Shown here: piece after piece, positions 12,102-56,932 of the stretch
Numbering within the stretch: position 1 is the first letter of the stretch
How the letters are laid out: each line of letters begins with the position of its first letter
IMG/VR virus record: IMGVR_UViG_3300009132_000008
Coordinates: 1-57,044 of that record
Direction: 5' to 3' (one strand)
Length of the DNA stretch: 57,044 nucleotides
Source: a virus
The notes under the pieces: model-generated
What the model was told of the DNA's origin: nothing
Seen by the model: only the letters and a program-made list of their open reading frames with translations
The model's database searches: none
Translations under genes and position numbers: made by a program

Positions 12102-12839
12102 ATGCCTAAGCGCAAACTTAAAGAAATAGAGAATTCTTCCGAGATAGAAGAAATTATGAGTAGTATTGGTAAAACTAAAATAAAATTAAAAAAAGTTGAG
12201 TTTACCGAAAAACAAAAAGACTTGCTTAAAATACTTTTCGATAAAAATACAAAGATAGTATTCTTAAGTGGCCCAGCAGGTACAAGTAAGACATTTATGG
12301 CTATCTACGCTGCTTTGCAATTATTCAATATGGATAATAAATATAACATAAGTTATGTAAGAACCATAATAGAAAGCGCAGATAGAGGCATGGGAGCCTT
12401 ACCTGGGAATGTTGATGAAAAATTTTGTCCATTCATGATGCCTTTAGAGGATAAGCTTTTTGAATTATTATCTGCTTCCGATGCAAAAAAAATCATTGAT
12501 GATAAAATAGTTTCTGCAATGCCAATAAATTATCTTCGGGGAGCTAGCATTAACGATCAAATACTAATAGCTGACGAATCTCAAAATTTTAGCGAAAAAG
12601 AACTAGTTACTTTAATAACTAGAATAGGTAAAAACACTAAAATGATTATTTGCGGCGACCCAATGCAGAGCGATATAAACGGAAAGAGCGGGTTTAATAA
12701 GATTAAAGATATTTTTAAAGATGAAGCTAGCGAAGCTCAAGGGATATATAATTTTAATTTTGATTATAAAGATATTAAAAGAAGTGTAATATTAAAATAT
12801 ATAATTAAAAAAATAGAAAATCATGAAAAAGGAAACTAA
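12102..12839 (+). CDS. phoH: PhoH-like P-loop ATPase, 245 aa
   Basis: Walker A is SGPAGTSKT (residues 56-64). Walker B is QILIADESQ (about 154-162), followed by the family's TRIGKNTKMIICGDPMQ segment (about 174-190). The PhoH family comprises cytoplasmic ATPases related to superfamily 1 helicases, common in phages; the substrate is unknown, with RNA a suspect. The usual length of the ATPase domain is met. It starts the rightward block, two bases after a TATATAATA box, and overlaps the subtilase gene by 17 bases. Confidence 0.95.
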   Translation: MPKRKLKEIENSSEIEEIMSSIGKTKIKLKKVEFTEKQKDLLKILFDKNTKIVFLSGPAGTSKTFMAIYAALQLFNMDNKYNISYVRTIIESADRGMGALPGNVDEKFCPFMMPLEDKLFELLSASDAKKIIDDKIVSAMPINYLRGASINDQILIADESQNFSEKELVTLITRIGKNTKMIICGDPMQSDINGKSGFNKIKDIFKDEASEAQGIYNFNFDYKDIKRSVILKYIIKKIENHEKGN

Positions 12840-14073
12840 GCTTCCAGAATTTAAAGTTGAGCATAAAATAGCAAGCTTATCTCAAATTGTTGATTGGGGT
12901 TTAAATCAATTAAATATCCCTGAGACCTGGAAAGTTTCCCAAGGGGAAGGCATAACAGCTGTTGTTATTGACACAGGCCACCCAAATCACCCCGACTTAA
13001 ATAAAAATATAGTAAAAGGCATTAACTGCATTCAGGGAGAAACTATATTCGATGGGAACGGGCATCAAACTCATTGTACTGGCATTATATGCGCCGAAAA
13101 TAATGATATGGGTATGGTTGGGGTAGCGCCAAAAGCTACTTGTATATCTGTTAAAGCTTTATCTAATTCAGGTAGTGGATCTTACAAGGCTTTAGCTGAC
13201 GCCTTGGATTATGCAATTAACATTAGACCTCAAGTCGTATCTATGAGTTTAGGTGGATCTGTCCCTTCTGACATGATCAAGTCAAAAATTAAAAAACTTT
13301 ATGATTTAAATATTCCAGTAGTTTGTGCTGCGGGTAACGATGGAGAAGGCGGGGTTAATTATCCAGCTGCATATGACGAAACTATAGCCGTGGCTTCTTT
13401 CAATAAAGCTGGAAATATATCTATTTTTTCCTCGAGAGGGGAACAAGTTGAATGGGCTGCTCCTGGAGAAGGAATATATAGTACATATTTAAATAATAGA
13501 TACGCTTCGTTAAGCGGTACTTCTATGGCATGCCCTTTTATAACAGGCGTCATATGCTTAATGTTAGCTAAGCATAAAAAGCAAGCTAGAAGAACGGGAG
13601 AAAACGATTGTAGAACGGTAGACGAAATTAGAGAGCATTTGTTGAAATACACAATGGATAAAGGAAGAAAAGGAAAAGATAACTCTTGGGGTTACGGAGT
13701 TATAGATGTGGAGAAAATGATGCTAGATGGAGTTTTCGACCCTTTCCCTAAAGAACCTGAACCTGAACCTGAGCCCGAACCTGAACCAGAGCCTGAACCA
13801 GAGCCTGAGCCAGAGCCTGAACCAGAGCCTGAGCCAGATATACCTCACCCATATCCAGAATCACCAAAAAAAGATTCTAAAAAAAGCGTTTACATTTGGG
13901 CGGGGATATCATTATTAGTTTTAATTCCTTCAATTTGGTTTATATACAATTATATGTTTAAAAAAGAGGTTATTGAAGTTCCATATATAGATGAGAATGG
14001 AAATGTGGATTTTGATAAAAAACTAGAGTATGAATATGGTGGTGGAAAATGGCGAGAGAGGGAGAAAAAGTAG
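12823..14073 (+). CDS. Membrane-anchored subtilisin-like serine protease (S8), 416 aa
   Basis: The catalytic triad is intact: Asp50 in AVVIDTG, His81 in GHQTHCTG and Ser234 in LSGTSMACP. The oxyanion Asn lies in CAAGND (about 172). There is no signal peptide and no recognisable propeptide beyond about 40 residues. After the catalytic domain comes a run of about 13 Glu-Pro repeats (about 311-336), a membrane helix (about 354-376) and a 40-residue charged tail. It overlaps phoH (17 bases) and the next small gene (25 bases). The target is unknown: capsid maturation, host membrane proteins or exclusion are all possible. Confidence 0.92.
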   Translation: MKKETKLPEFKVEHKIASLSQIVDWGLNQLNIPETWKVSQGEGITAVVIDTGHPNHPDLNKNIVKGINCIQGETIFDGNGHQTHCTGIICAENNDMGMVGVAPKATCISVKALSNSGSGSYKALADALDYAINIRPQVVSMSLGGSVPSDMIKSKIKKLYDLNIPVVCAAGNDGEGGVNYPAAYDETIAVASFNKAGNISIFSSRGEQVEWAAPGEGIYSTYLNNRYASLSGTSMACPFITGVICLMLAKHKKQARRTGENDCRTVDEIREHLLKYTMDKGRKGKDNSWGYGVIDVEKMMLDGVFDPFPKEPEPEPEPEPEPEPEPEPEPEPEPEPEPDIPHPYPESPKKDSKKSVYIWAGISLLVLIPSIWFIYNYMFKKEVIEVPYIDENGNVDFDKKLEYEYGGGKWREREKK

Positions 14074-16683: not shown

Positions 16684-17637
16684 ATGCTAAAGGAAACGGA
16701 GCCAGATTTAACCTGTAAGATTTGTGGGGAAACCTTTAAGTCAGAAAGGTCGTTACATGCCCATATAAAGGCCCACAACATCTTTGTAATGGATTACTAT
16801 GTTACCTTCTACCCCAGGAAGAATCTCCTCACAGGCGAGCCTATAGAGTTTAAAGATAAAAAACAGTATTTTTCTACTTATTTTTCAAATAGAGCTGAAA
16901 TAAGAGAATGGGCAAATAAAACAAAAAATAAAGAAGAAGTAAAAGAAGTATTTATAAAAATGTTGAGAAATAGGGTTATTGGTAAGAACTTACAGTACGG
17001 ACCAAATCATTTAGAATTAAAATTATATAATTTACCTTCCATAAGTATGTTCAAAGAATACTTTGGATCATATAATGAAGCATGCTCCATGCTTCAAGTT
17101 GAGCCAATATATAATAAAATTATAAAAAACAAATTTTTAAATAATAATAAAAATTTAGATGATATGGAGATTTTGATAGATACTAGAGAGCAAAAGCCTT
17201 TAAATTTTAATAATGCAAAATTACATAAATTAGATTATGGAGACTATACAGCATCAGGCAAATATTACAATAAAACCTATGTAGATAGAAAAAGCGAACA
17301 AGACTTCAAGGGAACTATGACAACAGGATTTAGCAGATTCATAAAAGAAATGGAAAGAGCTATATCCTTTGACTCCTATTTATATATCGTAATAGAAAGC
17401 TCTATAGAAAAAATAATAAAAAATAACCCTTTTGCATATCACGAGTCTAATTTAAAGTTCATATGGCATAGAATGAGGAAAATTACTCATATGTTTCCAA
17501 GAAAATGTCAATTCGTCTTTTCTGGAGGAAGGAATAGATCTCAAAACTTAATACCTATATTACTAGAAGGTGGAGAAGACTTATGGCAATCAGATATTCA
17601 ATATTACATAGACTCTAAAAAACTTTTAATACAATGA
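16684..17637 (+). CDS. ERCC4-type nuclease with N-terminal C2H2 zinc finger, 317 aa
   Basis: The C2H2 finger has Cys11, Cys14, His27 and His31, then the HNIFVMDYYVTFYPR extension typical of phage zinc-finger nucleases. A helical middle (about 60-140) leads to an ERCC4/XPF-type nuclease core: ILIDTREQ (163-170), LDYGDY (183-188) and VDRKSEQDF (200-208), matching the GDx(n)ERKx3D signature with Asp for Glu. The gene overlaps the terminase start (ATGA). It may cut branched or terminal DNA during packaging or recombination, or act as a homing-like endonuclease. Confidence 0.82.
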   Translation: MLKETEPDLTCKICGETFKSERSLHAHIKAHNIFVMDYYVTFYPRKNLLTGEPIEFKDKKQYFSTYFSNRAEIREWANKTKNKEEVKEVFIKMLRNRVIGKNLQYGPNHLELKLYNLPSISMFKEYFGSYNEACSMLQVEPIYNKIIKNKFLNNNKNLDDMEILIDTREQKPLNFNNAKLHKLDYGDYTASGKYYNKTYVDRKSEQDFKGTMTTGFSRFIKEMERAISFDSYLYIVIESSIEKIIKNNPFAYHESNLKFIWHRMRKITHMFPRKCQFVFSGGRNRSQNLIPILLEGGEDLWQSDIQYYIDSKKLLIQ

Positions 17638-19496
17638 CTTGGGAAGAAGGAAATCAAAAAAGAAATTTAAAGACAAGAGATATAAATGAGATCTTGAAAA
17701 ATAAAGACGGCTTCCTAGAAGAAAAAGAAGCTAAGCTTTTATTGTATGAATTCTTAAGAGAAAATACTACTTTCGCTGCAAATTTAATAGCTGGAGTAGA
17801 TTTATTTCCTTTTCAGCACATGGCAATCAAATCTATGTTTGAAAGCGATTATTTTTTAGGAATATGGTCTCGAGGAATGTCTAAATCATGGACTACTGGA
17901 ATTTTCGCTTTTATGGATGCCTTATTGAATCAAGGCGTGGATATAGGGATATTGTCAAAATCATTTAGACAGTCTAAGATGATATTCAAAAAAATTGAAG
18001 ACATTGTAGCTAAACCTGAAGCTGAATATTTATCTCAATGCATAAAAAGAATTTCAAAGGCTAACGATGAATGGGTTATGGAAATAGGAAATAGTTCAAT
18101 TAGAGCTTTGCCTTTGGGTGATGGTTCAAAGTTGAGAGGTTTTAGGTTTCATAGGATTATTATCGACGAAATGTTACTTATGCCAGAAAGGATATACAAT
18201 GAGGTTGTAGTTCCGTTCTTGTCTGTTGTTCAAAACCCTAAAGAAAGAGAAAATCTATACAACTTAGAAACAGACTTGATAAAACAAGGAAAAATGAAAG
18301 AAGAAGATAGGTATGTATGGCAAAACAATAAATTAATAATGCTATCTTCAGCTTCTTATAAATTTGAATATTTATACAAACTTTACGAAAGCTTTGAATC
18401 TCTTATCAAGTCAGATAATTCAGACAATAAAGCTTCAAGAACTATAATGCATTTCTCCTATGACTGCGCCCCTAAACAGCTTTTTGACCAAAACTTGATA
18501 GATCAGGCTAAATCAACAATGAGTCAAAGTCAATACGATAGGGAGTTTGGAGCGGTTTTTACAGACGATAGTTCTGGATATTTTAAGATATCTAAGATGA
18601 TCGAATGCACTGTAGAGGAAGGTTCAAATCCCTGCGTAGAAGTTAAAGGTGAAGATGGATACGAATACATACTCTCTTTTGACCCTAGCTGGGCCGAGAA
18701 CGAAGGTTCTGACGACTTCGCTATGCAGGTATTTAAATTAAACAAAGAAACAGGAAATGGCACCCTTGTCCATGTCTACGCTATGGCAGGAGAAAGTTTA
18801 AAAAATCATATTAATTATTTTAATTATTTAATTAATAATTTTAATATTGTATCTATGATAGGCGATTATAATGGTGGAGTACAATTTATTAATGCATTTA
18901 AGGAAAGTTCTTTATATAAAAACTCGGGTAAAACCATAAATATAGTCCAGACAGAATTTGATAATGCAGAAGAATATCAAAAATCATTAAGACTAGCTAA
19001 GAAAGAATTTTCAGCTACTGGAATACCATGTATATTAAGAAAGCCTACTTCAGACTGGATCAGAAGGGCTAACGAGCTCCTACAGGGCAATTTCGATCAT
19101 AAAAGAATCTGGTTTGCGTCTCAAGCTATGGACGATAATTACCAAAAGCAAAGAAAAAAGAAAATCCCGATTAAGTCTTTAAAATTCTTAAATTCCAACG
19201 AAGATGAGTTAAGGCAATCTGATGGAGCTAAAATGATAGATTTAGTTGAACATCTTCATGATATGATTAATTATACAAAAGGTCAATGCGCCTTAATAGA
19301 AGTTAAATCTTCTCCTCAAGGCATTCAAACTTTTGATTTACCATTAAACTTGAAAAAAACTACTGGAGCTGGAAAAGCAAGAAAGGACTGCTACTCAGCT
19401 TTAGTGCTTGGCAGTTGGATGATTAAAATTCATAATGATGTCTATAGCTATAAGGACGAAGTGGTATCTTCCTTTGTACCTATGTTCATAAAGTAA
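17634..19496 (+). CDS. terL: Terminase large subunit, 620 aa
   Basis: Packaging motor ATPase-nuclease. The ATPase has a Walker-A-like loop WSRGMSKSW (78-86), Walker B RIIIDEM (174-180) and coupling motif LSSASYK (about 237-243). The RNase-H-like nuclease has Asp350 in LSFDPSW, Asp411 in MIGDYNG and an acidic cluster MIDLVEHLHDM near 540. Length matches the gp17-like group. It sits in the standard order before the portal and overlaps the nuclease gene by four bases. Confidence 0.95.
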   Translation: MTWEEGNQKRNLKTRDINEILKNKDGFLEEKEAKLLLYEFLRENTTFAANLIAGVDLFPFQHMAIKSMFESDYFLGIWSRGMSKSWTTGIFAFMDALLNQGVDIGILSKSFRQSKMIFKKIEDIVAKPEAEYLSQCIKRISKANDEWVMEIGNSSIRALPLGDGSKLRGFRFHRIIIDEMLLMPERIYNEVVVPFLSVVQNPKERENLYNLETDLIKQGKMKEEDRYVWQNNKLIMLSSASYKFEYLYKLYESFESLIKSDNSDNKASRTIMHFSYDCAPKQLFDQNLIDQAKSTMSQSQYDREFGAVFTDDSSGYFKISKMIECTVEEGSNPCVEVKGEDGYEYILSFDPSWAENEGSDDFAMQVFKLNKETGNGTLVHVYAMAGESLKNHINYFNYLINNFNIVSMIGDYNGGVQFINAFKESSLYKNSGKTINIVQTEFDNAEEYQKSLRLAKKEFSATGIPCILRKPTSDWIRRANELLQGNFDHKRIWFASQAMDDNYQKQRKKKIPIKSLKFLNSNEDELRQSDGAKMIDLVEHLHDMINYTKGQCALIEVKSSPQGIQTFDLPLNLKKTTGAGKARKDCYSALVLGSWMIKIHNDVYSYKDEVVSSFVPMFIK

Positions 19497-32318: not shown

Positions 32319-35300
32319 ATGAGTGTAGTTAATATTCCAACTTCTGCTAGTGGCTATCATCAGAGTATAGTTAGCCAAGCTGCGTCTGCTCAAAGAGTTG
32401 TGAATAGAATGCAGATGAGCCCAAAGTTAAACCCTAATGGATTCATTCAACCTTTAGGAAGAATAACTAACTCAGCTAGCGAATTCCAGAAATCTATGGA
32501 CGCTTCTGCAGCCCGTGTTTTTGCTTTCGGAGCTGCCGTAGGAGTCATAAATGGAATATCAGACGCCTTTGCATCTGTCGTATCTTCCGCTGTGGAAGTC
32601 GAAAAAGCCTTAAAGGATGTACAAGTAGTTATGGAAGCTACCGATCAAGAAATGAGGAAGTTTGGTAGGGGCATATTTGATGTAGCAAAAAATACAGCTC
32701 AAAGTTTTGAAACCGTTTCTCAATCAGCTATAGAGTTAGCTAGGCAAGGTTTGGGAGCAGAAGAAACTTTAGCTAGGGTAAATTCAGCGCTTATATTATC
32801 TCGATTGTCTGGTTTGAGCGCTGTAAAGTCTACGGAAACTTTAACAGCTGCAATAAACTCTTTTAATAAAGAAGGTATAACTCACGAACAAATTATTAAT
32901 AGAATGGCTAATGTTGATGCGGCTTTTGCGGTTTCATCTTCGGATTTAGCGGAAGCTATATCTAGAGCTGGAGCTGTAGCTCAATCCTCTGGAGTTTCTT
33001 TTAATGAATTAGCTGCAATAGTAACTGCGGTTCAACAAAGAACTGCTAGAGGTGGATCTGTAATAGGAAATGGTTTTAAAAGTATATTCACGAGAATTAA
33101 AAGAAGTGGAGTGAGAGACGCTCTGGAAGAAATCGGTGTAGCTACTAAAAACAACGATGGATCTTTTCGTTCTTCAATATCTATATTAAAAGATTACGCT
33201 AATATATATAAAAATTTGTCTGACGCCCAAAAGGCTTACACCTCAGAACAAATAGCTGGAGTATTCCAGATACAAAACTTACAAGCTTTAATTCAAGATT
33301 TGAATGATGATGTATCTATTTACAACAAAGCTCTCGGGGTAGCTAATAACACAACTAATCAAGCTACGATGAGGAATGAAGAGTTGAATAAAACTTTGTC
33401 AGCGTTATTTAGTCAAGCTTCTTCAGAGGTAAAAGAATTTGCGGCAAGACTTGGCGAATTAGGTCTTTCGGGGTCTTTCAAAAATATAATCAAAGCTGTA
33501 GGAAGTTTAGCTGAATTTTTAAATGATTTACTAGACGAAGAAAAGGGTAATAGTTTGGCCAAAAGCTTCGTTAAAGGATTTGGGTCTTTTTTAACTGGAC
33601 CTGGATTGGTAATATTAGGGGCAGCTTTCCTTAAAATATTTAAATTAGTATCTGGTTTTGCCGTTACAGCTTTTGCCGACATGATGGGCATAAATAAAGA
33701 AGCTAAAAGACAACAAGGGCTTCAAGCAGCTATAGGTCAAGCACTAGCTAATAACAATGGGTTATATCAAAAAATTCTTGCAGCAGGAAGTAATACGGCA
33801 AAACAAGAAGCTATAATATTAAATTTAATCAAGCAAGAAACAGCTGAAAGATTAAAGCAAGAATCCATAGTAAGAAGGCTTGCTTCGAGTGGAGCTTTAT
33901 ATGGGATAGGAGCAAAAGAAACTGGATATGCAGCTGTAGGGGGAAAATTTTCTAGATCTAGAAGTATGGGAAATAAAGCTCTGGGTCTTTCTGGAGGATT
34001 TTTACCTTCAATGATGCAAGAGCAAAGAGATATTAACATGGGTATAGGCGGAGCCAGAAAAGGAGATAGACCCGTTGTTTTAAGAAACCATAAAATGGGA
34101 TCAGGTAAAACTCAAAATGTTGTTGCCCATACTGGAGAGTGGATGGTTCCTAATTTTGCTGGAACAGGTGGAGATGCTATATTTAATAGGTCTATGGTAA
34201 AATCTTTTGGATTGCCGAAGGGAGCGAGAAAAATAACTGCGTCTTCAGGTTTTGTACCTAACTACTCAAGGGGAAAATCTATTTCAGCTACATCTTTGGA
34301 GCTAGGATTTAAGGAAGGTGGAAACAGTTTAATATCTAAAAAATCAGATTACTTCGATTCTTTTTCATCAACTATAAATTTAATTAAAAATTCTTTAGGG
34401 ACAAAACAAATAGGTACGGCAGCACAAAAAGATTATCAAAAAATATTAAAACCTGTTTTTTTTGATGACAATAATAATATTATTAAAAACCCTACTAAAG
34501 ACCAAAAAGAAGTTTTATCTAGAAGATATCAATTAAGTAAAAAAGAATATAGAAAGTTCTTAAAAAAGGGAGTTGATGGAGTAACTTACGGAGAGTTAAT
34601 GAAAAGCTCCCCTTACAACGGTTTTAAAACTGGAATAAGAAATCTACTAAGCATGTCCTATAAAGGAAGGAAGCAACCTATTGAAATAGAAAAACAATTT
34701 TCATCTTTAACTAATATAACAAAAGGCGCAAGAGGAGAAATAGAGGGAGTAAAAACATTAAAAGCTTTAGGATATACTAATATAAAACCTATAGCTAAAT
34801 CAGGAAGCTTTGACAAGCAAGCTATATCCCCCTCAGGAAAAAAAGTTTTAGCGGAAGATAAATCTGGAAAATTTGTCAATAAGTATGGAATTTTAAAAAA
34901 AGGAGTAACTCAATATTTAGGTACTTTACCAGGAGAAGGACTTAAAGACCAAAAGAAAGATCACATTAATTTAAACGCTGTTAAAGCGGGGAGAAGTTTA
35001 ATGTTTCCTGGGGGATTAAATTTAATTTCTGCATCTGATACGAAAATAGGAGCAAATAAGATTACTCACGAAAAATACGCAAAAGAGTCTAAAGGTAGAA
35101 AAGAATATTTAAAAATGGCAAAAAACTCTTTTAAAGAAGATACGGGTCTTGAGCATGTAAGCACACCCGACCTTAAGAAGCTCACAGAAGTATTAAAAAA
35201 TTACTCATCATTTGCGTCTGGATATATTCCCAATTTTGCAAAAGCGGGAGTTCAAACTTCTTTAGGGTTCGTATCTACACAAAGAATTAACAGACTTAAA

Positions 35301-38300
35301 GATGGACAATCAGCAAATATAGGAGGAGGAAAAGTTTATTTAGATAAGTTTTCTGTAGAGGATCAAGCTAAAATAAAATCTTTTGAAGCTGAAAATTCAA
35401 AGCAGAAAATAGCTATAGCAGCAGAGAGCAGAAAAAAAGCTAGAAATGAAATGCCTACTATAGATGCTTCTAGGCAAGCGACCATGTTGGTGGCCACCAA
35501 TAATTTCAGAAAGAAAATTGATTCGAATTATAAACATGGAGATAAAACTTATAGGTTAAAATATAGAGTGGAGGGGTTAAAACCGTCTAAACTTAAAAAT
35601 ACTGAAAAAAATATAAGATCTCGAATTGAAGATTTAATGATTCAAGAATCTTCTGGGCTTGCGAGAACCTTATCTGGGACAGGTCAGTTTGCAGCCAATA
35701 ACCCAATCATAAAAAAATTGTCTAACGCTGGAAGCGCCGGATCAGCAGCGGGATCTATTTTTGAAACTGCATTACAGGCAATAGGTAAAAACAAATTATT
35801 TACAAGTAATAACGCGGGTTTTGATATAGCTGGTATGCCCGATGCTAGGCTGCAAAAACTTTTTGGATATTACACGCCTTTTGCTGATGCAAAAATAGGA
35901 TTAACATCAGATACCAAAAGAGATTTTCATCAAAAATTAATGAATCTTCAAGGGCAAACAAGAAAGATTTCAGGAAAAGAAAGAAAAGCTCAAGGAAAAA
36001 TGGCCTTAGACACAAGAAAGAAATATGGGGCTCCTCAAAGAGCTTCTGTAGGCTTCGTTCCAAATTTTGGCAGATTTAATTTATTCGAAGGGGTTAGAAC
36101 TACAAAAGGCGGAAAAGATTATATATGGGAAAACGAATTGGCTCAAGCAAAACACCAGTTACCAGAAGGGACAAAGTTTACTCCATGGGCAAAAAATCCC
36201 AAAATGCTTTTTGTCTCTGGGCATAAAAATAGAAACCAGATGACAAAAGATAAAATTTCTTTTGAATCTTCTGAAGACTTAAGAATGTTTGGAAAATTTG
36301 CAGCTAACGAAGGTTATCCAGAAGTTATGGCAGCAATAGTTAAAGCTTCCTCAGTAAAAGAAAGATCTAAGATTTTAACAGGTAATGCCAGAACTCAAAG
36401 AGTTTACGATAGGAAAGCTGGAAAAAACCAAATCGAAAAGATTCCAAATGAAATAAGTATTGAAGATATTAAAAAGATGGGAATATCTGATTTTAAAAAT
36501 TTCGAACTGGGAAGAATTGGAGCCAAGCTTGAAGATTTGTATACAGCTAGATCATTTGATAAAGTTGAAAATGAAAAGTTTATTCAAAAGCCAATAGGTC
36601 AGAAAGAGTATATGCCGCTTGGTGGAGCAACTGAGCCAAAAATGGCTGACGTTTATGACTCCAGGGAAAATATATTTAAGAATATACAAAAAACCAGAGG
36701 GAAAGATTTTGTTGAAGATGCAACTGTTCAAGATTTATACAAACGGTTTTCCGAAGAGCAAAAATTAAAATCTAATTACAATTACTCAAAAGGATTCATT
36801 CCTAATTTTATGGCGTGGGGTCTTACTAAGCGATCTGGGTTTGGTAAAGACGGATCAGTTTTTGAGCGGTCAGAAGGGAAAAAAAGAGTTTTACATGTTT
36901 CTCATATTAGAAGCGGGAGCGGAGAGTTTGGCTCTTCCATATATAAAAGATTACTTCAGGAAATTCAAGATGCAGCAAAAAGGGGAAAGCCTTATACCAA
37001 AATTGACGCTGGATCTATTGTAGGGCCAAGAATACCAAGAGCCTTACTTGCAGCAAAAAAAGTATTAGATAAGAAAAGATTAAAACAGAATATTCCAAAA
37101 ATGCAATTGGAGGGCATGTTTATACCAAAGCAATTAAGAGCGAGGGTTGAAAAATTTAGACAAGACAACTATTTTAGTAAAGATGGTAAATTTCAAACAA
37201 AAGACTCGTCTGAATATTTACCTGGGGAAGAAAGAAAGTTGATAAAATCTTTGCGAAGTTTTGGATTAGGTAGAAACGCTCATAAGCAAAAGGGGTTTGT
37301 AAATTTAGAAGATCTACCTATGGGAAAAAGTTTTTCAACAGGTTTTGTACCTAACTTTTCCAAGGTTAACATGAATTGGGGAAAGTTAAAAAGTGGGGAA
37401 AAAATGTTAAGTATCCCAGAAACTCTTTCTAGCCTAAGGTATTCAAAGCAATCCGGAAAAACAACAGCAATAGATTTTATATCTTCAATGAGAAAAGGAG
37501 ATGGGTCGAAATTATTTGAAACTCTTTTGAAAAAAGAAAAAGCCTTAAAAAGCACTCATTTGTCTCCAGTTAGAGTGTGGAAACAAAACTCTAAAACAAA
37601 TTTTGAAGATCTAATGTATGCATTTCCTCAATTACAATATAGGTTAAAAAAGGGAATGGAAACAACAGGAAGAATTAATTTAGGGGGAGGGAAAACTTTT
37701 AGATTTCAAAGCTTAAAAGATCTTAAAGAAATTGTTAACAAAAATTTTAAAAGAAATGAATTTCAAGGTCTTATAGAAGGTAAGTCAGTTCAAGTAGGTT
37801 CGGGAACAATCAGGCAAAATAGACTAGCGGTAGAAGATTTAACTACGGTATTTAATAAAAATAGAGTTGGGGATGATATATATAAAAAATACTCCAAAGG
37901 TTTTATTCCTAATTTTGCTCGTCCAGGAAGAAAGTTTAAAAGATTCAAAAAGGATAAATTTTTAAGAGATATTGGAAAGCGTCGAGAATCAAACAAACGT
38001 AGCAACGAAGAAAGTTATATTTGGGCTGCCGATAAATCTTTAAAGCTTCAAAAAATTTCAAAGCAATTACATTTAGATAAAATAGATGATGTGTTTCAGG
38101 GTTTAGGTTTTTTCTCCAAAGGGTTTATCCCTAATTTTGCTGATCAAGTTAATATTTCTAAAGCTTTGGAAGATATGTTTAAGAGGTATGGGAATTCTTT
38201 ATATAAAGACGGAAAATTTCCTGGGCAAGATTTTGGAGCAATAGACAAAAACTCATTTAAAAAACTGGATAAAATTCATCAGCAAATGTCTGTTTCTAAG

Positions 38301-41300
38301 ATATTAAAACCAGCAGAAGCTGTAAAACTACAACACAGGATGTTTAAGTATGACGATGAAAAATATCGAGGCCAAACTGGAAAATACATAGACCCATCTG
38401 CAGATAATTTCAAAAAACTTAGCTCTTTGGAAATGGCCGCTCTCGGTATGTCTGCAAAAAGAATGTCTGAATTACTTAATCAAAGAGCTTCTTCTACGGA
38501 AGGTAAGAAAATAGTTGAGTCAGATAGATTAAAATTAAAAGAGCTAATAAAAAAAGAGCAAGCTGACTTAAATAATTTAAGGGTTTATGGAACGAGAGTT
38601 GGAGGGGAAGATATTTTAATGCAAGACAAAGGGGTTAGGAAAGTCCCAATAGGTAGCGAGTCGCCCCACAGGCAGCTTAGGTTTCCAGATGTCATTCAAC
38701 AAAGAAAAGATCAATTAAGAGCTTCTATGAAAAGAGGAGGTCACCTTAGAAATTCTTTATCTCCTGTTTCTACAACATCAATGCTTGATAGAAGTATAAA
38801 TCAAGTTAAGTATTTAGAGATTGAACAGTCTCAAAAAAGATTAGCCCAATTAAAATATGAAATGGCATTGATTAGCGGGAAAGGGCATTTAGATACAGTA
38901 AGAGCTATTAAAAAAATTCCTTCTGATATTTATTCTTCTGGAGAAAAAAGAAAATCTATTAAAAAACTTTTGGATTTAGATTCCCACTTGGTAAGAAATT
39001 CTAAAACTGATGGAGTATCCCAACAGTCAAGAGTGGATAGAGCTAAATATTTAAACTCTTTAATAGAAGAAATAGAAGAAAATAAGAAAAATAAATTTTT
39101 ATATAGAAATACTTATGGTAGACTCGAATCAATTCGCTCTGGTGTTTCAGATATTTATTCAGGAGCTAAAGAGAAGTCTAGATCATTAACTCCAAAATTA
39201 AGGAGGTTTGGCAGGTTTTTTGTTAGAGGTTCAACTGGTTTTATTCCTTCTTTAAAAGAGTCTTTCGCAAGAGAAAAAAAGTCTTTGAAACAAAGAGGTT
39301 TGAGTAGTAAGGGTATAAGATTAGAGCAAAGCGATAAGTTAAAGAATCAAAAAAATCCAGAAGGTTTTGCTATTACTAATATTTGGGATGAACCACTAGG
39401 AGTAAACCAAGGAATATTAAGGTCTGAAAGAATGGGTATTGATCCAAAAAAACATGGAGCAATAAACTCATCTAAAGGCTTTATTCCTAATTATAGGCTA
39501 TCAGCTTTAAAGAGGTCGCCTAAACCCGCAAAAAAACCAAAAAAAGATATGACTCCTGAAGAGTTAGCTCAGGCTAAAGCTGCATCTCAACAAGCGTGGA
39601 TGACCAGGGGAATAGTAGCGTCAATGGCCGCGCCAATGATAGCAGATCAAATAAGCAGAGGAGACAAATATAATACAAGCATAATGGGAAATGCAAGCGC
39701 TCAAGCTCTTCAATTCGGATCTTACGGATTAATGTTTGGAGGAAAAGGAGGACTTATTGGAGCGGGGCTTGGAGGAATATATGGAGCAGTAGATGCTGGT
39801 AGAAACACAACATCAAAGGGCGCTTTAAAAGATATGGCTTCATCAATGAGAAATCAGCAGCAAAAATTACTTGAAGAAACTAAAAATATAGAATCTTTAA
39901 GAGATTATGCTGAAGGAATTAGATCTTTAAATGACGCGATAGCTTCAGGAGATCAAGATTCAATAAGGAATCATAGAAAACAGTTAGAACAGGGATTAAG
40001 GGGAATAACTGATGATGCTATTTTAAATGCTTTGAAAAACACCTCCGATGGTGCTGAAGGGTTAAGGGATAAAATGCTCATACTTGATGAAGCTCTAGAA
40101 AAATCAACTAGACAAGCGGAATCAATGAAAACAGTTCTTGAGGCTACAAGTGCTGTATTCGCCTCAATAGAAAACAATCAACCTGATTGGGGGGATATGT
40201 TTGGAAGTTACTTTACTGATATAGATCCTAAAGTAGATCTTTCTGAGTCAAGAAACTTAGCTCGTAAAATGCGTCCAATAATTGATTCATCAAGACGAAC
40301 AGATGTTGATGCGATTTTGAGATCTCAATATAAAGATTACTCAAATAGTCTCAAAGAAGGAGATGAAAAAATGTCGTATCAAGAGTTTTCTAATGAAAAA
40401 AGAGGAGGGGTCCAAATCAAAACTTTCGAAAATGAAATAAAAATACTTGAAGGCGACGTAAAGAAAATTAATCGTTTTTCAGAATTATTTGATACAGCTA
40501 TGGCTGAAAAATTTTCGGATAATGATTTATTACCTGAGAATCATACAAAAAGGTTAATTAAACCAGCGGATCCAGTTGCCTTTCAAGGTGGTGTTAAAAA
40601 TGTATTTGGAGGTGACGGAAAAGATGGAAAGACTGGATTAATAGCAAATCAAAGAGCTGTAGCCTCAATGATGCTAGGAGACAAAAGAATGTTAGATCTT
40701 TTCTCTGAAAATGGAAATTTAGGAGATTTCCTTAAATATGCTTCATTAGCCTCTGGATCGAAAATAACCGAGTTAAGTAAAGATGATTATAATAATAAAG
40801 ACGTTGGATTTGATAACAAATTTCAGACTGGAGGTCACTTTTTCGGAATAAATGATGGAGATGATGGGCAATCTATAAACGTAGATATGGTGAGGGAATA
40901 TTTCAAGATATTTCCCGAATTATTAAGCGATCTAAGGAAAAAGCTTGAAGCTGCTAAAGCTGGAGAAAAAGATATTGATACAAGTTTAACAGCCGTATAC
41001 AATATAGACGAAGAGCTGAAAAAAGCCATAAGAAACGCTCAAAGTCTGACAAGGAATTTAGAACTTTTTTCAAAAATTTTCGAACAATCTCAAAAAGCTT
41101 GGGGTCAATATATAGAAAATGCAACATCAGAAAGAATGGGAAAAAACCAAGATCTTTTTTCTGTTGGAGCTTTATCTAGAGAGGAATTTACTGAAAGAAG
41201 ATTTAGAATTGAAAGAGCTAACGCCATTGATCAAAACACTTTAAATAAAGAAAGTGCAATAATGCAAGTTTTATCAAAAAGGTTTGACCCCGATTCAACT

Positions 41301-42584
41301 TACGACTTAAAAGAGATGCAGAGAATGGCTAAAACGGTAGTTTCAGAAAATAAAGGGGGACACATTCGAAAGGTTACTCAAGATATAGCTGACGAAGATA
41401 GGCCTGGAAGGTCTAATTTTACAAATCTTTTAAACGACTTTATGTCTCGAATGAGAGCGGGAACAGATGAAGGTGGAATATCAGGATTTTTACAAAGTTT
41501 AAACGCAAACTCAAAATTGACTAATGAAATTCTAGAAGAAATAGCCGTATCTAACATGGGGATACAAAATGATCTAGAAGCAAGAATGGAAGCTATAAGA
41601 GTTCAAGAAAATCAACAGATTAGAGCGCAGGCTATAGATGTTATAGCTAAAAACGCTTCTTCATTAATTTCAAATGAAGATCAGTCTAATATATTACAAC
41701 TGTTTAAATTGGGAGGAGCAAAAAGTTCTCGAGGGCTGTCTCAATTTGGAATTGAGCAAGCCTCCTCTATTTCAAATGCAGATAGAGATTCTTTTGGAAA
41801 AATGGATTTAGCTAGACAGTCCATGGCTCAAGCAAGTCTAGAGAAAAGATTTGGAGTTTCTCTAGCAAGTCAAACTGGAAGAGATGGATTACAAAATAAA
41901 AGAAACATTTTTGATTTTAACAAAGGAATTTTAAAAGATTTAGGGGGAGGTCTCCCTGGAATGGACAGAATAATATCAAATATAGAAAACGCATTTGATA
42001 TAATGGAAAACTCAAGAGACGAACAACACGCTATATTTAAACAATTAGATTTAACTCATTTAGGTTATGGGACTGACGATGAAAAACTAGTGGGATTGCA
42101 ATTGAAATACCTTCCTGAATTAAAAACAATTAGTTCTGGCATTCAAACTATAGCTAGCAATTACACGCTAAAAACAAATGTATCCCCCGCTTCTATTGAT
42201 CAAAATGTTGTCAAAAATACATTAGCTACTCAAGGTCAAGCTGTAAGCCCAGAAAACGAGAATTTCTTATCTAAAGTTTTTGATGATTTTACCTCTAAGA
42301 TAGAAAGCTCAAATCAAGCTTTAGCTGCGGGAAATAACCTATTGTCTGAAGCTTTGGCGGTTATCCCGAATCAAATAAAAAATGAAATTTCCAATGCAGT
42401 ATTTCATCATGCTATAAATGGTAATGTGAAAATAGATTTTAACACAGAAGAGTTAAAACAAGCTTTGGGATCAGAATTAAGCTCTAAATTAGAAGAAATT
42501 TTTGCTAGTGGAACAACAGCTATGGTTGTAGCTAAAGCTGTACAAGGGTTAATAGAGATAAAGCCTAATCAAATAAAAAATTAA
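32319..42584 (+). CDS. Tape measure protein with embedded domains, 3421 aa
   Basis: Residues 1-400 match the phage tail tape-measure domain (VINGISDAFASVVSSAVEVE at about 75-94, then the SALILSRLSGLSAVKSTETL segment). Residues 600-2400 contain ten [FYM][IV]PNF-type motifs, at about 608, 644, 968, 1245, 1492, 1675, 1861, 1935, 2307 and 2387, separating distinct inserts. Insert 644-968 carries E807, D832 and E846-D-K848; insert 968-1245 carries E1149, D1169 and D1190-A-K1192. Both fit PD-(D/E)XK nuclease cores. A Gly/Ala-rich hydrophobic part near 2480 and long helices follow. It sets tail length and probably enters the host envelope with the DNA. Confidence 0.93.
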   Translation: MSVVNIPTSASGYHQSIVSQAASAQRVVNRMQMSPKLNPNGFIQPLGRITNSASEFQKSMDASAARVFAFGAAVGVINGISDAFASVVSSAVEVEKALKDVQVVMEATDQEMRKFGRGIFDVAKNTAQSFETVSQSAIELARQGLGAEETLARVNSALILSRLSGLSAVKSTETLTAAINSFNKEGITHEQIINRMANVDAAFAVSSSDLAEAISRAGAVAQSSGVSFNELAAIVTAVQQRTARGGSVIGNGFKSIFTRIKRSGVRDALEEIGVATKNNDGSFRSSISILKDYANIYKNLSDAQKAYTSEQIAGVFQIQNLQALIQDLNDDVSIYNKALGVANNTTNQATMRNEELNKTLSALFSQASSEVKEFAARLGELGLSGSFKNIIKAVGSLAEFLNDLLDEEKGNSLAKSFVKGFGSFLTGPGLVILGAAFLKIFKLVSGFAVTAFADMMGINKEAKRQQGLQAAIGQALANNNGLYQKILAAGSNTAKQEAIILNLIKQETAERLKQESIVRRLASSGALYGIGAKETGYAAVGGKFSRSRSMGNKALGLSGGFLPSMMQEQRDINMGIGGARKGDRPVVLRNHKMGSGKTQNVVAHTGEWMVPNFAGTGGDAIFNRSMVKSFGLPKGARKITASSGFVPNYSRGKSISATSLELGFKEGGNSLISKKSDYFDSFSSTINLIKNSLGTKQIGTAAQKDYQKILKPVFFDDNNNIIKNPTKDQKEVLSRRYQLSKKEYRKFLKKGVDGVTYGELMKSSPYNGFKTGIRNLLSMSYKGRKQPIEIEKQFSSLTNITKGARGEIEGVKTLKALGYTNIKPIAKSGSFDKQAISPSGKKVLAEDKSGKFVNKYGILKKGVTQYLGTLPGEGLKDQKKDHINLNAVKAGRSLMFPGGLNLISASDTKIGANKITHEKYAKESKGRKEYLKMAKNSFKEDTGLEHVSTPDLKKLTEVLKNYSSFASGYIPNFAKAGVQTSLGFVSTQRINRLKDGQSANIGGGKVYLDKFSVEDQAKIKSFEAENSKQKIAIAAESRKKARNEMPTIDASRQATMLVATNNFRKKIDSNYKHGDKTYRLKYRVEGLKPSKLKNTEKNIRSRIEDLMIQESSGLARTLSGTGQFAANNPIIKKLSNAGSAGSAAGSIFETALQAIGKNKLFTSNNAGFDIAGMPDARLQKLFGYYTPFADAKIGLTSDTKRDFHQKLMNLQGQTRKISGKERKAQGKMALDTRKKYGAPQRASVGFVPNFGRFNLFEGVRTTKGGKDYIWENELAQAKHQLPEGTKFTPWAKNPKMLFVSGHKNRNQMTKDKISFESSEDLRMFGKFAANEGYPEVMAAIVKASSVKERSKILTGNARTQRVYDRKAGKNQIEKIPNEISIEDIKKMGISDFKNFELGRIGAKLEDLYTARSFDKVENEKFIQKPIGQKEYMPLGGATEPKMADVYDSRENIFKNIQKTRGKDFVEDATVQDLYKRFSEEQKLKSNYNYSKGFIPNFMAWGLTKRSGFGKDGSVFERSEGKKRVLHVSHIRSGSGEFGSSIYKRLLQEIQDAAKRGKPYTKIDAGSIVGPRIPRALLAAKKVLDKKRLKQNIPKMQLEGMFIPKQLRARVEKFRQDNYFSKDGKFQTKDSSEYLPGEERKLIKSLRSFGLGRNAHKQKGFVNLEDLPMGKSFSTGFVPNFSKVNMNWGKLKSGEKMLSIPETLSSLRYSKQSGKTTAIDFISSMRKGDGSKLFETLLKKEKALKSTHLSPVRVWKQNSKTNFEDLMYAFPQLQYRLKKGMETTGRINLGGGKTFRFQSLKDLKEIVNKNFKRNEFQGLIEGKSVQVGSGTIRQNRLAVEDLTTVFNKNRVGDDIYKKYSKGFIPNFARPGRKFKRFKKDKFLRDIGKRRESNKRSNEESYIWAADKSLKLQKISKQLHLDKIDDVFQGLGFFSKGFIPNFADQVNISKALEDMFKRYGNSLYKDGKFPGQDFGAIDKNSFKKLDKIHQQMSVSKILKPAEAVKLQHRMFKYDDEKYRGQTGKYIDPSADNFKKLSSLEMAALGMSAKRMSELLNQRASSTEGKKIVESDRLKLKELIKKEQADLNNLRVYGTRVGGEDILMQDKGVRKVPIGSESPHRQLRFPDVIQQRKDQLRASMKRGGHLRNSLSPVSTTSMLDRSINQVKYLEIEQSQKRLAQLKYEMALISGKGHLDTVRAIKKIPSDIYSSGEKRKSIKKLLDLDSHLVRNSKTDGVSQQSRVDRAKYLNSLIEEIEENKKNKFLYRNTYGRLESIRSGVSDIYSGAKEKSRSLTPKLRRFGRFFVRGSTGFIPSLKESFAREKKSLKQRGLSSKGIRLEQSDKLKNQKNPEGFAITNIWDEPLGVNQGILRSERMGIDPKKHGAINSSKGFIPNYRLSALKRSPKPAKKPKKDMTPEELAQAKAASQQAWMTRGIVASMAAPMIADQISRGDKYNTSIMGNASAQALQFGSYGLMFGGKGGLIGAGLGGIYGAVDAGRNTTSKGALKDMASSMRNQQQKLLEETKNIESLRDYAEGIRSLNDAIASGDQDSIRNHRKQLEQGLRGITDDAILNALKNTSDGAEGLRDKMLILDEALEKSTRQAESMKTVLEATSAVFASIENNQPDWGDMFGSYFTDIDPKVDLSESRNLARKMRPIIDSSRRTDVDAILRSQYKDYSNSLKEGDEKMSYQEFSNEKRGGVQIKTFENEIKILEGDVKKINRFSELFDTAMAEKFSDNDLLPENHTKRLIKPADPVAFQGGVKNVFGGDGKDGKTGLIANQRAVASMMLGDKRMLDLFSENGNLGDFLKYASLASGSKITELSKDDYNNKDVGFDNKFQTGGHFFGINDGDDGQSINVDMVREYFKIFPELLSDLRKKLEAAKAGEKDIDTSLTAVYNIDEELKKAIRNAQSLTRNLELFSKIFEQSQKAWGQYIENATSERMGKNQDLFSVGALSREEFTERRFRIERANAIDQNTLNKESAIMQVLSKRFDPDSTYDLKEMQRMAKTVVSENKGGHIRKVTQDIADEDRPGRSNFTNLLNDFMSRMRAGTDEGGISGFLQSLNANSKLTNEILEEIAVSNMGIQNDLEARMEAIRVQENQQIRAQAIDVIAKNASSLISNEDQSNILQLFKLGGAKSSRGLSQFGIEQASSISNADRDSFGKMDLARQSMAQASLEKRFGVSLASQTGRDGLQNKRNIFDFNKGILKDLGGGLPGMDRIISNIENAFDIMENSRDEQHAIFKQLDLTHLGYGTDDEKLVGLQLKYLPELKTISSGIQTIASNYTLKTNVSPASIDQNVVKNTLATQGQAVSPENENFLSKVFDDFTSKIESSNQALAAGNNLLSEALAVIPNQIKNEISNAVFHHAINGNVKIDFNTEELKQALGSELSSKLEEIFASGTTAMVVAKAVQGLIEIKPNQIKN
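34140..39494 (+). repeat. Ten G[FY][IV]PNF-type motifs inside the tape measure gene
   Basis: Protein-level repeats, most of the form (S/A)-x-G-F-(I/V)-P-N-(F/Y): WMVPNF 608-613, GFVPNY 644-649, GYIPNF 968-973, GFVPNF 1245-1250, GFIPNF 1492-1497, GFVPNF 1675-1680, GFIPNF 1861-1866 and 1935-1940, GFIPS 2307-2311, GFIPNY 2387-2392. Gaps vary from 36 to 372 residues. They look like hinge or docking linkers between domain cassettes. Confidence 0.9.
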
Positions 42585-55815: not shown

Positions 55816-56406
55816 TTAATCCTTTCTTCTTTTTGATATTTTTTTTAAAAAATTATTGTGAACATCAATACAACCTTGTATTGATAAATCAACTTTCTTG
55901 CAAACTTGATGCCATGGCATAAGTTTATTACCCGAACCATTTAAGTATCTTAATGTAAATATTTTTAATATTCTTTCGTCTTTCTGTTTTTTAATGAAAT
56001 CCATAGCCTGGTCAACTTCAGAGGAGATGTTGCTTAAATTTTCTTTATATTCAAAATCTTTTTTGTTTTCTATTTCGTTTGTTATTTCAACTTGATTTAA
56101 GAATTTTTTCTTAAATATTTGATAATCTTTTATTAAGATCCATTTTAATCTATTATAAAAAAATGTAGTGAATTTTGATTTTTTATCACATTTAAAATCT
56201 AAGCAAATGTTATAAAAAAGTAAATTTTTATCTTTTATAAAATCGTTTCTGCATTCTTTCGTTCTAAAGTATGTATATTTATGAATTATTTTATAAAAAA
56301 GTTTTTCATGCCTAGAGGTTATTTCTTCCAAGCATCCTTCTACGTTTTTACCTTTTTTTATTAAAGATATTAATTCATTATCTTCGTAGTCTTTTAAGCT
56401 TTTCAT
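55816..56406 (-). CDS. Second sigma-70-like factor, 196 aa
   Basis: The N-terminus NELISLIKKGKNVEGCLEEI (about 8-27) and the DKNLLFYNICLDFKCDKKSK segment (about 60-79) with FTTFFYNRLKWILIKDYQ (about 80-97) match sigma region 2 (core binding and -10 recognition). A helical C-terminal part with IKKQKDERILKIFTLRYL (about 135-152) resembles region 4. The ATG at 56406 was preferred over a TTG at 56412. It overlaps the kinase gene by 29 bases. Confidence 0.72.
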   Translation of the reverse strand: MKSLKDYEDNELISLIKKGKNVEGCLEEITSRHEKLFYKIIHKYTYFRTKECRNDFIKDKNLLFYNICLDFKCDKKSKFTTFFYNRLKWILIKDYQIFKKKFLNQVEITNEIENKKDFEYKENLSNISSEVDQAMDFIKKQKDERILKIFTLRYLNGSGNKLMPWHQVCKKVDLSIQGCIDVHNNFLKKISKRRKD

Positions 56407-56932
56407 TAACAAAATCTTCGATAAAAGGCAAGCCTTCGTCTATGGTTTTATCAAAAGTTTTCCATTCTATTAAGTAATCTGAGTTATTTTTTAAAATAGG
56501 TTCGTTTTCTTCTTCTTCTTCGTTTATAGGCGGGAAGCCCTCTCTGCATATATGAACATTAATACATTCTTCAAAGTGACTCTTAAGGTATCTTTGTTCG
56601 TTTAAATATCTGACGTCTGTTATAACAGGAATTTTTAAATTTTTAAAAGGAAGGATTTTATCCATTAATCTTTGAATCCAATAATCTTCGTTTATATTTC
56701 TAGCTAATTTGCCGTAAGAAACCATAAGTGGTCTTATCAGCTCTTTTTCCTCGTCTGAGCAACTTGATATTTTTATATCAAATTTTCTAGAAATTAATCT
56801 TTTTAAATCATTCTTTAACTCATCTGCAAAAGCAAATCTTTGAAAAAACTTAGTAGATCCGTGGTACTTGGATAAAAGTTTAAAAAAAGTATCTTTTCCT
56901 GATCGGGCTGAACCTGAGACTCCTATAATCAT
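56378..56932 (-). CDS. Deoxynucleoside monophosphate kinase, 184 aa
   Basis: The P-loop is GVSGSARSGKDTF (residues 4-16). FQRFAFADELKNDLKRLI (about 30-47) and the IPVITDVRYLNEQRYLK (about 99-115) Walker-B-like segment are typical of T4-gene-1-like dNMP kinases, which phosphorylate dNMPs including modified ones. Its ATG overlaps the upstream stop (ATGA). A kinase here supports either a large nucleotide demand or a modified base. Confidence 0.9.
   Translation of the reverse strand: MIIGVSGSARSGKDTFFKLLSKYHGSTKFFQRFAFADELKNDLKRLISRKFDIKISSCSDEEKELIRPLMVSYGKLARNINEDYWIQRLMDKILPFKNLKIPVITDVRYLNEQRYLKSHFEECINVHICREGFPPINEEEEENEPILKNNSDYLIEWKTFDKTIDEGLPFIEDFVNEKLKRLRR

What the first reader, a model, noticed from the sequence alone, without database searches (positions are those of the whole stretch)
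32319..42584. Tape measure protein with embedded nuclease-like domain cassettes
Between residues 600 and 2400 ten [IV]PNF-type linkers separate inserts of very different length. Insert 2 carries GARGEIEG, SGSFDKQ and LAEDKSGK, giving E807, D832 and E846-D-K848. Insert 3 carries GSIFETA, GFDIAG and FADAKIG, giving E1149, D1169 and D1190-A-K1192. Both orders match the PD-(D/E)XK nuclease core. Tape measures enter or cross the envelope at infection, so this could be a way to deliver enzymes with the genome, built like polymorphic toxins with a constant linker and swappable payloads.
Basis: partly seen in the sequence, partly recalled or inferred. Interest (0 to 1): 0.88.

Follow-up and report, generated by a model that had tools for sequence, protein, structure and literature searches.

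The report
Phage tape measure carrying swappable enzymes
The long protein that sets tail length in this uncultivated phage carries a string of enzyme-like modules (two look like DNA- or RNA-cutting nucleases), and related phages swap these modules exactly at a short repeated peptide, which suggests that phage tails may inject exchangeable sets of enzymes together with their DNA.

Summary
The 3421-aa ORF is a tape measure protein (PF10145, E 3e-27). A slot after residue ~600 holds cassettes separated by G[FY][IV]PN[FY] linkers. The listed catalytic residues are invariant in relatives: insert 2 11/11, insert 3 54/54 (first acid of DxK is D or E). Insert 2 is supported as PD-(D/E)XK by profile comparison (UPF0102, 85.5%, catalytic residues in register) and by weak but consistent fold hits. 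Insert 3 has the signature and a confident model, but fold searches matched nothing useful; its fold is unproven.

In related uncultivated phages the part before the slot is constant (595 ± 5 aa) while the slot spans 262-2129 aa. I found 246 cassettes in 80 families: nuclease-like, GNAT, SNase, P-loop, HSP90-type ATPase, kinase-like, HAD-like. Two phages with identical N-domains share no cassette, and DNA homology breaks at the linkers (58 of 87 breakpoints within 5 aa; 5.7 expected). No immunity gene swapped along in the pair examined.

I infer a tail-borne, exchangeable effector array delivered at infection. Delivery and activity are untested. Closest precedents: tape-measure-related effectors of contractile injection systems (Tme, Sle1) and phage polyvalent proteins.

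The parts
32319..34133 (+). Constant N-terminal tape measure part (residues 1-605, PhageMin_Tail at 122-314)
   Evidence: PF10145 E 3.1e-27, PHROG tape measure families; 595 +/- 5 aa in 32 complete relatives
34134..34253 (+). Start cap of the cassette slot (residues 606-645)
   Evidence: Conserved in 42 ORFs of relatives
34248..34265 (+). Linker GFVPNY (residue 644)
34266..35219 (+). Insert 2 (residues 650-967): PD-(D/E)XK nuclease domain related to UPF0102/Hjc, E807, D832, E846, K848
   Evidence: Residues invariant 11/11; AF2 pLDDT 83; hhalign to UPF0102 85.5% with catalytic residues aligned; PD-(D/E)XK structures recur among weak fold matches
35220..35237 (+). Linker GYIPNF (residue 968)
35238..36050 (+). 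Insert 3 (residues 974-1244): cassette with PD-(D/E)XK signature E1149, D1169, D1190-x-K1192; fold unproven
   Evidence: Residues conserved in 54/54 distinct copies; AF2 pLDDT 90; fold searches inconclusive
36051..36068 (+). Linker GFVPNF (residue 1245)
36069..36791 (+). Cassette 1251-1491, no relatives found
   Evidence: Only itself matched
36792..36809 (+). Linker GFIPNF (residue 1492)
36810..37340 (+). Cassette 1498-1674 (family f8), shared with other tape measures in different positions, function unknown
   Evidence: 10 copies in 9 ORFs; order relative to insert 3 reversed in L005/L188
37341..37358 (+). Linker GFVPNF (residue 1675)
37359..37898 (+). Cassette 1681-1860 (family f6), shared with other tape measures
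37899..37916 (+). Linker GFIPNF (residue 1861)
37917..38120 (+). Short segment 1867-1934, in 7 relatives
38121..38138 (+). Linker GFIPNF (residue 1935)
38139..39236 (+). Cassette 1941-2306, no relatives found
   Evidence: Only itself matched
39237..39254 (+). Degenerate linker GFIPSL (residue 2307)
39255..39476 (+). End cap of the slot (NP-G-V-N--DEP-G motif)
   Evidence: 83 copies in 82 ORFs; precedes the last linker in 52 of 54; at least 420 viral stretches encode it
39477..39494 (+). Last linker GFIPNY (residue 2387)
39495..42584 (+). C-terminal part of the tape measure; GxxxG-rich stretch at residues 2470-2489
   Evidence: GxxxGxxxG at 2470, 2477, 2481; enriched after the end cap in relatives, 74 of 123 against 35 by shuffling

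Best explanation
The gene encodes a tape measure protein whose middle is an exchangeable array of enzyme modules. Shown: a constant N-terminal tape-measure part, a start cap, a variable number of cassettes bounded by the peptide GFIPNF, an end cap, and a C-terminal part often with a glycine-zipper-like stretch; cassettes move between phages with joints at the linker codons; many cassettes keep catalytic signatures under purifying selection. Inferred: the array travels in the tail as part of the tape measure (probably unfolded or extended while in the narrow tube), leaves with it at infection, and the cassettes act on host molecules (nucleic acids, proteins) early in infection. The linker probably acts at the protein level as a spacer or recognised motif (cleavage or chaperone binding) that lets each cassette fold or be released on its own; this step is a guess. 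In this window the array holds one PD-(D/E)XK domain related to UPF0102 and a second cassette with the same catalytic signature.
For: Tape measure identity. Fixed slot position, variable slot length. 246 cassettes, 80 families; 53 arrangements in 61 tape measures, six family pairs in both orders. L204/L207: identical N-domain, no shared cassette, DNA breakpoints at linkers; 58 of 87 breakpoints within 5 aa of a linker against 5.7 expected, 21 of 36 against 2.3 when each locus is used once. Catalytic residues conserved 11/11 and 54/54. Insert 2 aligned to UPF0102. Enzyme families in other cassettes: SNase and GNAT over Pfam cut-offs, weaker HSP90-type ATPase, P-loop, ParB-like. dN/dS medians about 0.1-0.23. 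Linker conserved as peptide, not as DNA. Precedent that tape-measure-related proteins deliver enzymes: Tme (PMC11126660), Sle1 (PMC13277306). Glycine-zipper enrichment after the array (role in translocation in a T6SS DNase, PMC10240207).
Against: No experiment shows delivery, folding or activity. Folded 20-30 kDa domains are hard to fit in a tail tube. Two window cassettes have no relatives and most cassette families no recognised function. Insert 3 has no structural match. All relatives are metagenomic contigs.
Confidence: 0.6

Rival explanations
1. The nuclease cassettes are selfish elements of homing-endonuclease or intein type that invade the tape measure gene and spread by cutting cassette-free alleles; the linkers are in-frame insertion scars.
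For: Nuclease-like cassettes are the most frequent kind (at least 87 of 246); known homing endonucleases of PD-(D/E)XK fold exist, and one (2ost, I-Ssp6803I) is among the weak fold matches of insert 2.
Against: Other cassettes in the same slots are not nucleases (GNAT, kinase-like, HAD-like, ATPases). Non-nuclease cassettes are exchanged with the same joints (P-loop family 98% identical between 54% identical backbones). Slot and caps are constant.
Confidence: 0.1
2. The array is a tail-length device: cassettes are filler that lengthens or shortens the tape, with former enzyme domains kept as convenient folded or unfolded spacers.
For: Tape measure length is known to set tail length (established knowledge); array length varies from 262 to 2129 aa.
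Against: Catalytic signature residues are nearly the only invariant positions in the two largest families, which filler would not keep; purifying selection on cassettes.
Confidence: 0.08
3. The cassettes act in the producing cell or inside the virion (for example during assembly or genome packaging, or against competing phages in the same cell) rather than in the next host.
For: Nothing here shows delivery; no immunity gene swaps along in the pair tested, which is compatible with harmless targets in the producing cell.
Against: Fusion to a protein that leaves with the genome gives no advantage for an action in the producing cell; tape-measure-related effectors of injection systems act after ejection (PMC11126660, PMC13277306).
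Confidence: 0.15

Closest known systems
Tape-measure-related effectors of actinobacterial contractile injection systems: Tme (PMC11126660) and Sle1 (PMC13277306)
   Same: Tape-measure-related delivery protein with an enzymatic payload (Tme has an active endonuclease domain); payload differs between relatives and can be exchanged (Sle1)
   Different: There the payload is a C-terminal domain in an injection system of a bacterium; here several payloads form an internal array in tape measures of phages, bounded by a shared peptide linker and caps, and the nuclease is of another fold than the EndA-like one of Tme
Phage polyvalent proteins (PMC5512222)
   Same: Several unrelated enzymatic domains in one large phage protein, thought to be delivered early to counter or take over the host
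   Different: Those described are not tape measures (the paper's text contains no 'tape measure') and no common linker or recombination joint was reported there in the passages read
Polymorphic toxin systems (PMC3482391)
   Same: Constant delivery part, variable enzymatic payloads exchanged by recombination
   Different: Several internal payloads instead of one C-terminal toxin; no immunity gene swaps along in the pair examined
Tape measure proteins with built-in peptidoglycan hydrolase motifs (mycobacteriophage TM4, PMC1796659)
   Same: Enzymatic module inside a phage tape measure
   Different: One cell-wall enzyme that helps entry, not an exchangeable array of diverse enzymes
UPF0102 (YraN) and other PD-(D/E)XK nucleases
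   Same: Insert 2 aligns with catalytic residues in register
   Different: Embedded in a tape measure, with a long additional N-terminal part of its own

Membership tests
Tape measure protein | Phage minor tail / tape measure N-terminal domain | tested here: met
   PF10145 E 3.1e-27, over cut-off; PHROG tape measure families
Tape measure protein | Largest ORF in a tail gene cluster, upstream of tail-tip genes | tested here: met
   3421 aa, by far the largest ORF, followed by large same-strand ORFs in the late cluster; the downstream genes have no PHROG match, so their tail-tip role is inferred
Tape measure protein | Protein length sets tail length | not testable with these tools
   Needs virions
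PD-(D/E)XK superfamily (insert 2) | Acid - D - (D/E)xK catalytic residues conserved in homologues | tested here: met
   E807, D832, E846, K848 in 11/11 distinct relatives
PD-(D/E)XK superfamily (insert 2) | Homology to a known member | tested here: met
   hhalign to UPF0102: 85.5%, score 42, against about 20 or less for other cassette families; catalytic residues aligned
PD-(D/E)XK superfamily (insert 2) | Alpha/beta core of the fold | tested here: inconclusive
   Model pLDDT 83 with the expected order helix(E)-strand-strand(D)-strand(ExK)-helix; many PD-(D/E)XK structures among matches, but all Z below 5
PD-(D/E)XK superfamily (insert 3) | Acid - D - (D/E)xK catalytic residues conserved in homologues | tested here: met
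   54/54 distinct copies
PD-(D/E)XK superfamily (insert 3) | Alpha/beta core of the fold | tested here: inconclusive
   Model pLDDT 90 but no useful match in PDB or viral structures
PD-(D/E)XK superfamily (insert 3) | Homology to a known member | tested here: inconclusive
   No profile match to VRR_NUC, UPF0102, Mrr or PDDEXK_1, but these mostly fail to find each other as well
PD-(D/E)XK superfamily | Metal-dependent nuclease activity | not testable with these tools
   Needs purified protein
Polymorphic toxin systems | Constant delivery part with recombining payloads | tested here: met
Polymorphic toxin systems | Payload accompanied by a cognate immunity gene | tested here: not met
   L204/L207 exchange the whole array while about 6 kb upstream and 2.3 kb downstream of the ORF stay colinear at about 97%; one pair only, so an immunity gene further away is not excluded
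Phage polyvalent proteins | Several unrelated enzymatic domains in one virion-associated polypeptide | tested here: inconclusive
   Diverse families in relatives; in the window only nuclease-type signatures are recognised; virion association follows only from tape measure identity
Tape-measure-related CIS effectors (Tme/Sle1) | Encoded in a contractile injection system cluster of a bacterium | tested here: not met
   The window is a virus record with terminase

The most novel reading that the evidence does not exclude
Tape measure proteins of a large, so far uncultivated group of tailed phages are general delivery platforms: a fixed slot holds a linear array of up to seven enzymatic effectors, exchanged as linker-bounded cassettes between phages and without immunity genes, so that a phage can change what its tail injects while keeping the tail.
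Probability: 0.5. Interest if true: 0.93.

Novelty: new variant of a known kind. Interest (0 to 1): 0.86.

Why it matters
A survey of protein modularity in phages reported that tape measure proteins look mosaic but that no genuine recent mosaicism could be confirmed (PMC10684548); here are cases with identical N-domains and breakpoints at the linkers. If the cassettes are delivered, tailed phages inject exchangeable enzyme sets with their DNA, which would tie phage tails to the tape-measure-related effectors of contractile injection systems. The linker-and-cap grammar offers a way to find many unrecognised phage effector domains in metagenomes, and makes the question whether tape measures carry cargo directly testable.

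Tried and rejected
tblastn of the cassette region against 50,697 phage records: none; tape measures of three relatives match isolates in the N-domain only. Single-protein scans with inserts 2 and 3 in viral contigs: none. Pfam and PHROG scans of insert 3 members: chance-level hits only. Sequence profiles of inserts 2, 3 and of four other cassette families against PDB sequences: nothing credible. Foldseek and VIA for insert 3: no nuclease among the matches, mostly weak Ras-like ones. Linker DNA as a recombination site: rejected, synonymous codons are as alike as codon usage predicts. GNAT fold for the cassettes at 1498-1674 and 1681-1860: suspected by eye, profile probability to the GNAT family only about 1-7%, not claimed. 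ADP-ribosyltransferase-like (L060, L020) and zinc-peptidase-like (L083) cassettes: seen by eye, no Pfam support, left as leads. A literature search for the linker peptide found nothing. Breakpoint counts overlap between related pairs, hence the one-pair-per-locus control.

Full report
The observation. The ORF at 32319-42584 encodes 3421 aa. Its N-terminal part is a tape measure protein (PF10145, E 3.1e-27; PHROG tape measure families down to 1.8e-49). The window is a whole IMG/VR record of 57,044 bases.

Relatives. A scan with the N-domain gave 22 viral contigs, 45-81% identical there. A conserved end cap, the segment before the last linker, has at least 420 relatives in IMG/VR by one pattern, seven in bacterial genome assemblies, all metagenome-assembled, and none in 50,697 phage records at E 0.01. 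The group is therefore large and essentially uncultivated.

Architecture. In 32 complete tape measures the part before the slot has 595 ± 5 aa and the slot 262 to 2129 aa. The slot starts with a cap (GE-VPNFAG-GG-AIFN-MV-GLP-GAKKI), continues with cassettes each bounded by linkers, and ends with a cap; the linker after this cap is the last of the ORF in 52 of 54 cases. GxxxGxxxG lies within 220 aa after the end cap in 74 of 123 tape measures against 35 by shuffling; a glycine zipper serves membrane translocation in a T6SS DNase and was also noted in tape measures (PMC10240207).

Swapping. 246 cassettes of 85 aa or more from 114 tape measures form 80 families, 45 of them singletons. 61 tape measures with two or more cassettes show 53 arrangements, and six family pairs occur in both orders. 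The window's insert 3 family precedes the family of cassette 1498-1674 here and follows it in L005. L204 and L207 have identical N-domains over 500 aa and no cassette family in common. Their DNA is about 97% identical up to residue 633, one residue past the first linker (627-632), and homology returns at residue 1056/1323, at the linker (1057/1324) that opens the end-cap segment. L207 and L220 differ by one cassette exchanged exactly between two linkers. One P-loop cassette is 98% identical between tape measures whose N-domains are 54% identical. Over all pairs 58 of 87 homology ends lie within 5 aa of a linker, 5.7 expected, median distance 1.3 against 66 aa; with each locus used in one pair only, 21 of 36 against 2.3. 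Linker codons are no more alike than codon usage predicts (0.494 against 0.474), so it is the peptide that is conserved; the joints are probably kept because only recombinants with intact linkers and frame survive (inference).

Insert 2. E807, D832, E846 and K848 are invariant in 11 distinct relatives. The model has pLDDT 83. The second-look aligner lists FAN1, VRR_NUC, Hjc, EndoMS, Card1, SPARDA, DdmD, EcoRV, EcoO109I and arenavirus endonucleases, which I know as PD-(D/E)XK or cap-snatching relatives of that fold, with Z from 2.5 to 4.7 among unrelated rows; each value alone is weak, the recurrence of one superfamily is the argument. A profile of UPF0102 proteins fetched for the purpose aligns at 85.5% with the four catalytic positions in register, score 42 against about 20 or less for other cassette families.

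Insert 3. Its family has 57 copies in 53 ORFs. E1149, D1169, D/E1190 and K1192 are conserved in all 54 distinct copies although identity is often 15-25%; apart from the G and F of GxxFE and one F they are the only columns above 90% in that family. Family f1 (31 members) has the invariant pattern GxxFE-FDF-[DE]AK and is linked to it by profile comparison, as are f16 and more weakly f20; together 87 of 246 cassettes. The model is confident (pLDDT 90), but no PDB or viral structure matched usefully. The fold of insert 3 is therefore unproven and its assignment rests on the signature.

Other cassettes in relatives. Over the Pfam cut-off: SNase and GNAT. Weaker: HSP90-type ATPase, P-loop ATPase, ParB-like. 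By motifs in alignments: a kinase-like family (GxG, VGVKKF, DLHGSN, DPG) and a HAD-like family (YDWDGT, T-RP, K, VDD). Another group of nuclease-like families has a conserved E, VD-I and EVKSG. Cassettes are under purifying selection, median dN/dS about 0.1-0.23 in seven families, 0.44 in one single-pair family.

Mechanism. A tape measure sits in the tail tube and leaves it when the phage infects (established for several siphophages; from general knowledge, not tested here). Covalent placement in it would deliver the cassettes with the genome. Tme of Streptomyces davawensis, a tape-measure-related effector with an active endonuclease domain, and Sle1, packaged in a tail-like particle and changed in effect by domain exchange, show that this works in contractile injection systems (PMC11126660; PMC13277306). 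Delivery, activity and targets in the present phages are inferred. About 6 kb upstream and 2.3 kb downstream of the L204/L207 ORFs are colinear, so no nearby immunity gene swaps along; this differs from polymorphic toxins and suggests that the enzymes are inert in the producing cell or aimed at targets whose loss does no harm at that stage.

Verdict. Novelty is rated a new variant of a known kind because effectors on tape-measure-related proteins and polyvalent phage proteins are known; the linker-bounded internal array in phage tape measures and its exchange at the linkers were not found in the literature searched here, which covers open-licence papers only.

Noticed in passing
window 12823-14073 (+): Subtilisin-like protease (PHROG protease family, E 7.8e-75) with an acidic Pro/Glu repeat and a predicted membrane segment near its C terminus by eye; a possible processing enzyme, no link to the linkers shown.
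   Followed up: no
window 12102-12839 (+): PhoH-like ATPase by eye (Walker A GPAGTSKT).
   Followed up: no
window 17634-19496 (+) and 56378-56932 (-): Terminase large subunit and deoxynucleoside monophosphate kinase; nearly all other tail genes have no PHROG match.
   Followed up: no
L204 and L207, tape measure residues 1285-1541/1552-1875 and 1900-2228/2234-2641: The C-terminal part of the tape measure, outside the linker array, is also mosaic between these two near-identical phages.
   Followed up: no
L060:7921-8550, L020:13727-14374, L008:14552-16015, L083:428-1393: Cassettes that look by eye like ADP-ribosyltransferases (first three) and a zinc peptidase (L083); Pfam gave no support for the ones scanned.
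   Followed up: partly
L144, L145 (Halobacteriovorax MAG), L147-L149 (Flavobacteriales MAGs), L150 (Verrucomicrobiales MAG): The only bacterial-genome contigs with the end cap; L145 is the same length and range as IMG/VR contig L184, so these may be binned phage contigs and hint at hosts only weakly.
   Followed up: no
window 34266-35219 and L002, L005, L007-L009, L011-L013, L015: Insert 2 always sits in the first slot in the window's own clade and was not found outside it, unlike insert 3, which moves between positions and backbones.
   Followed up: partly
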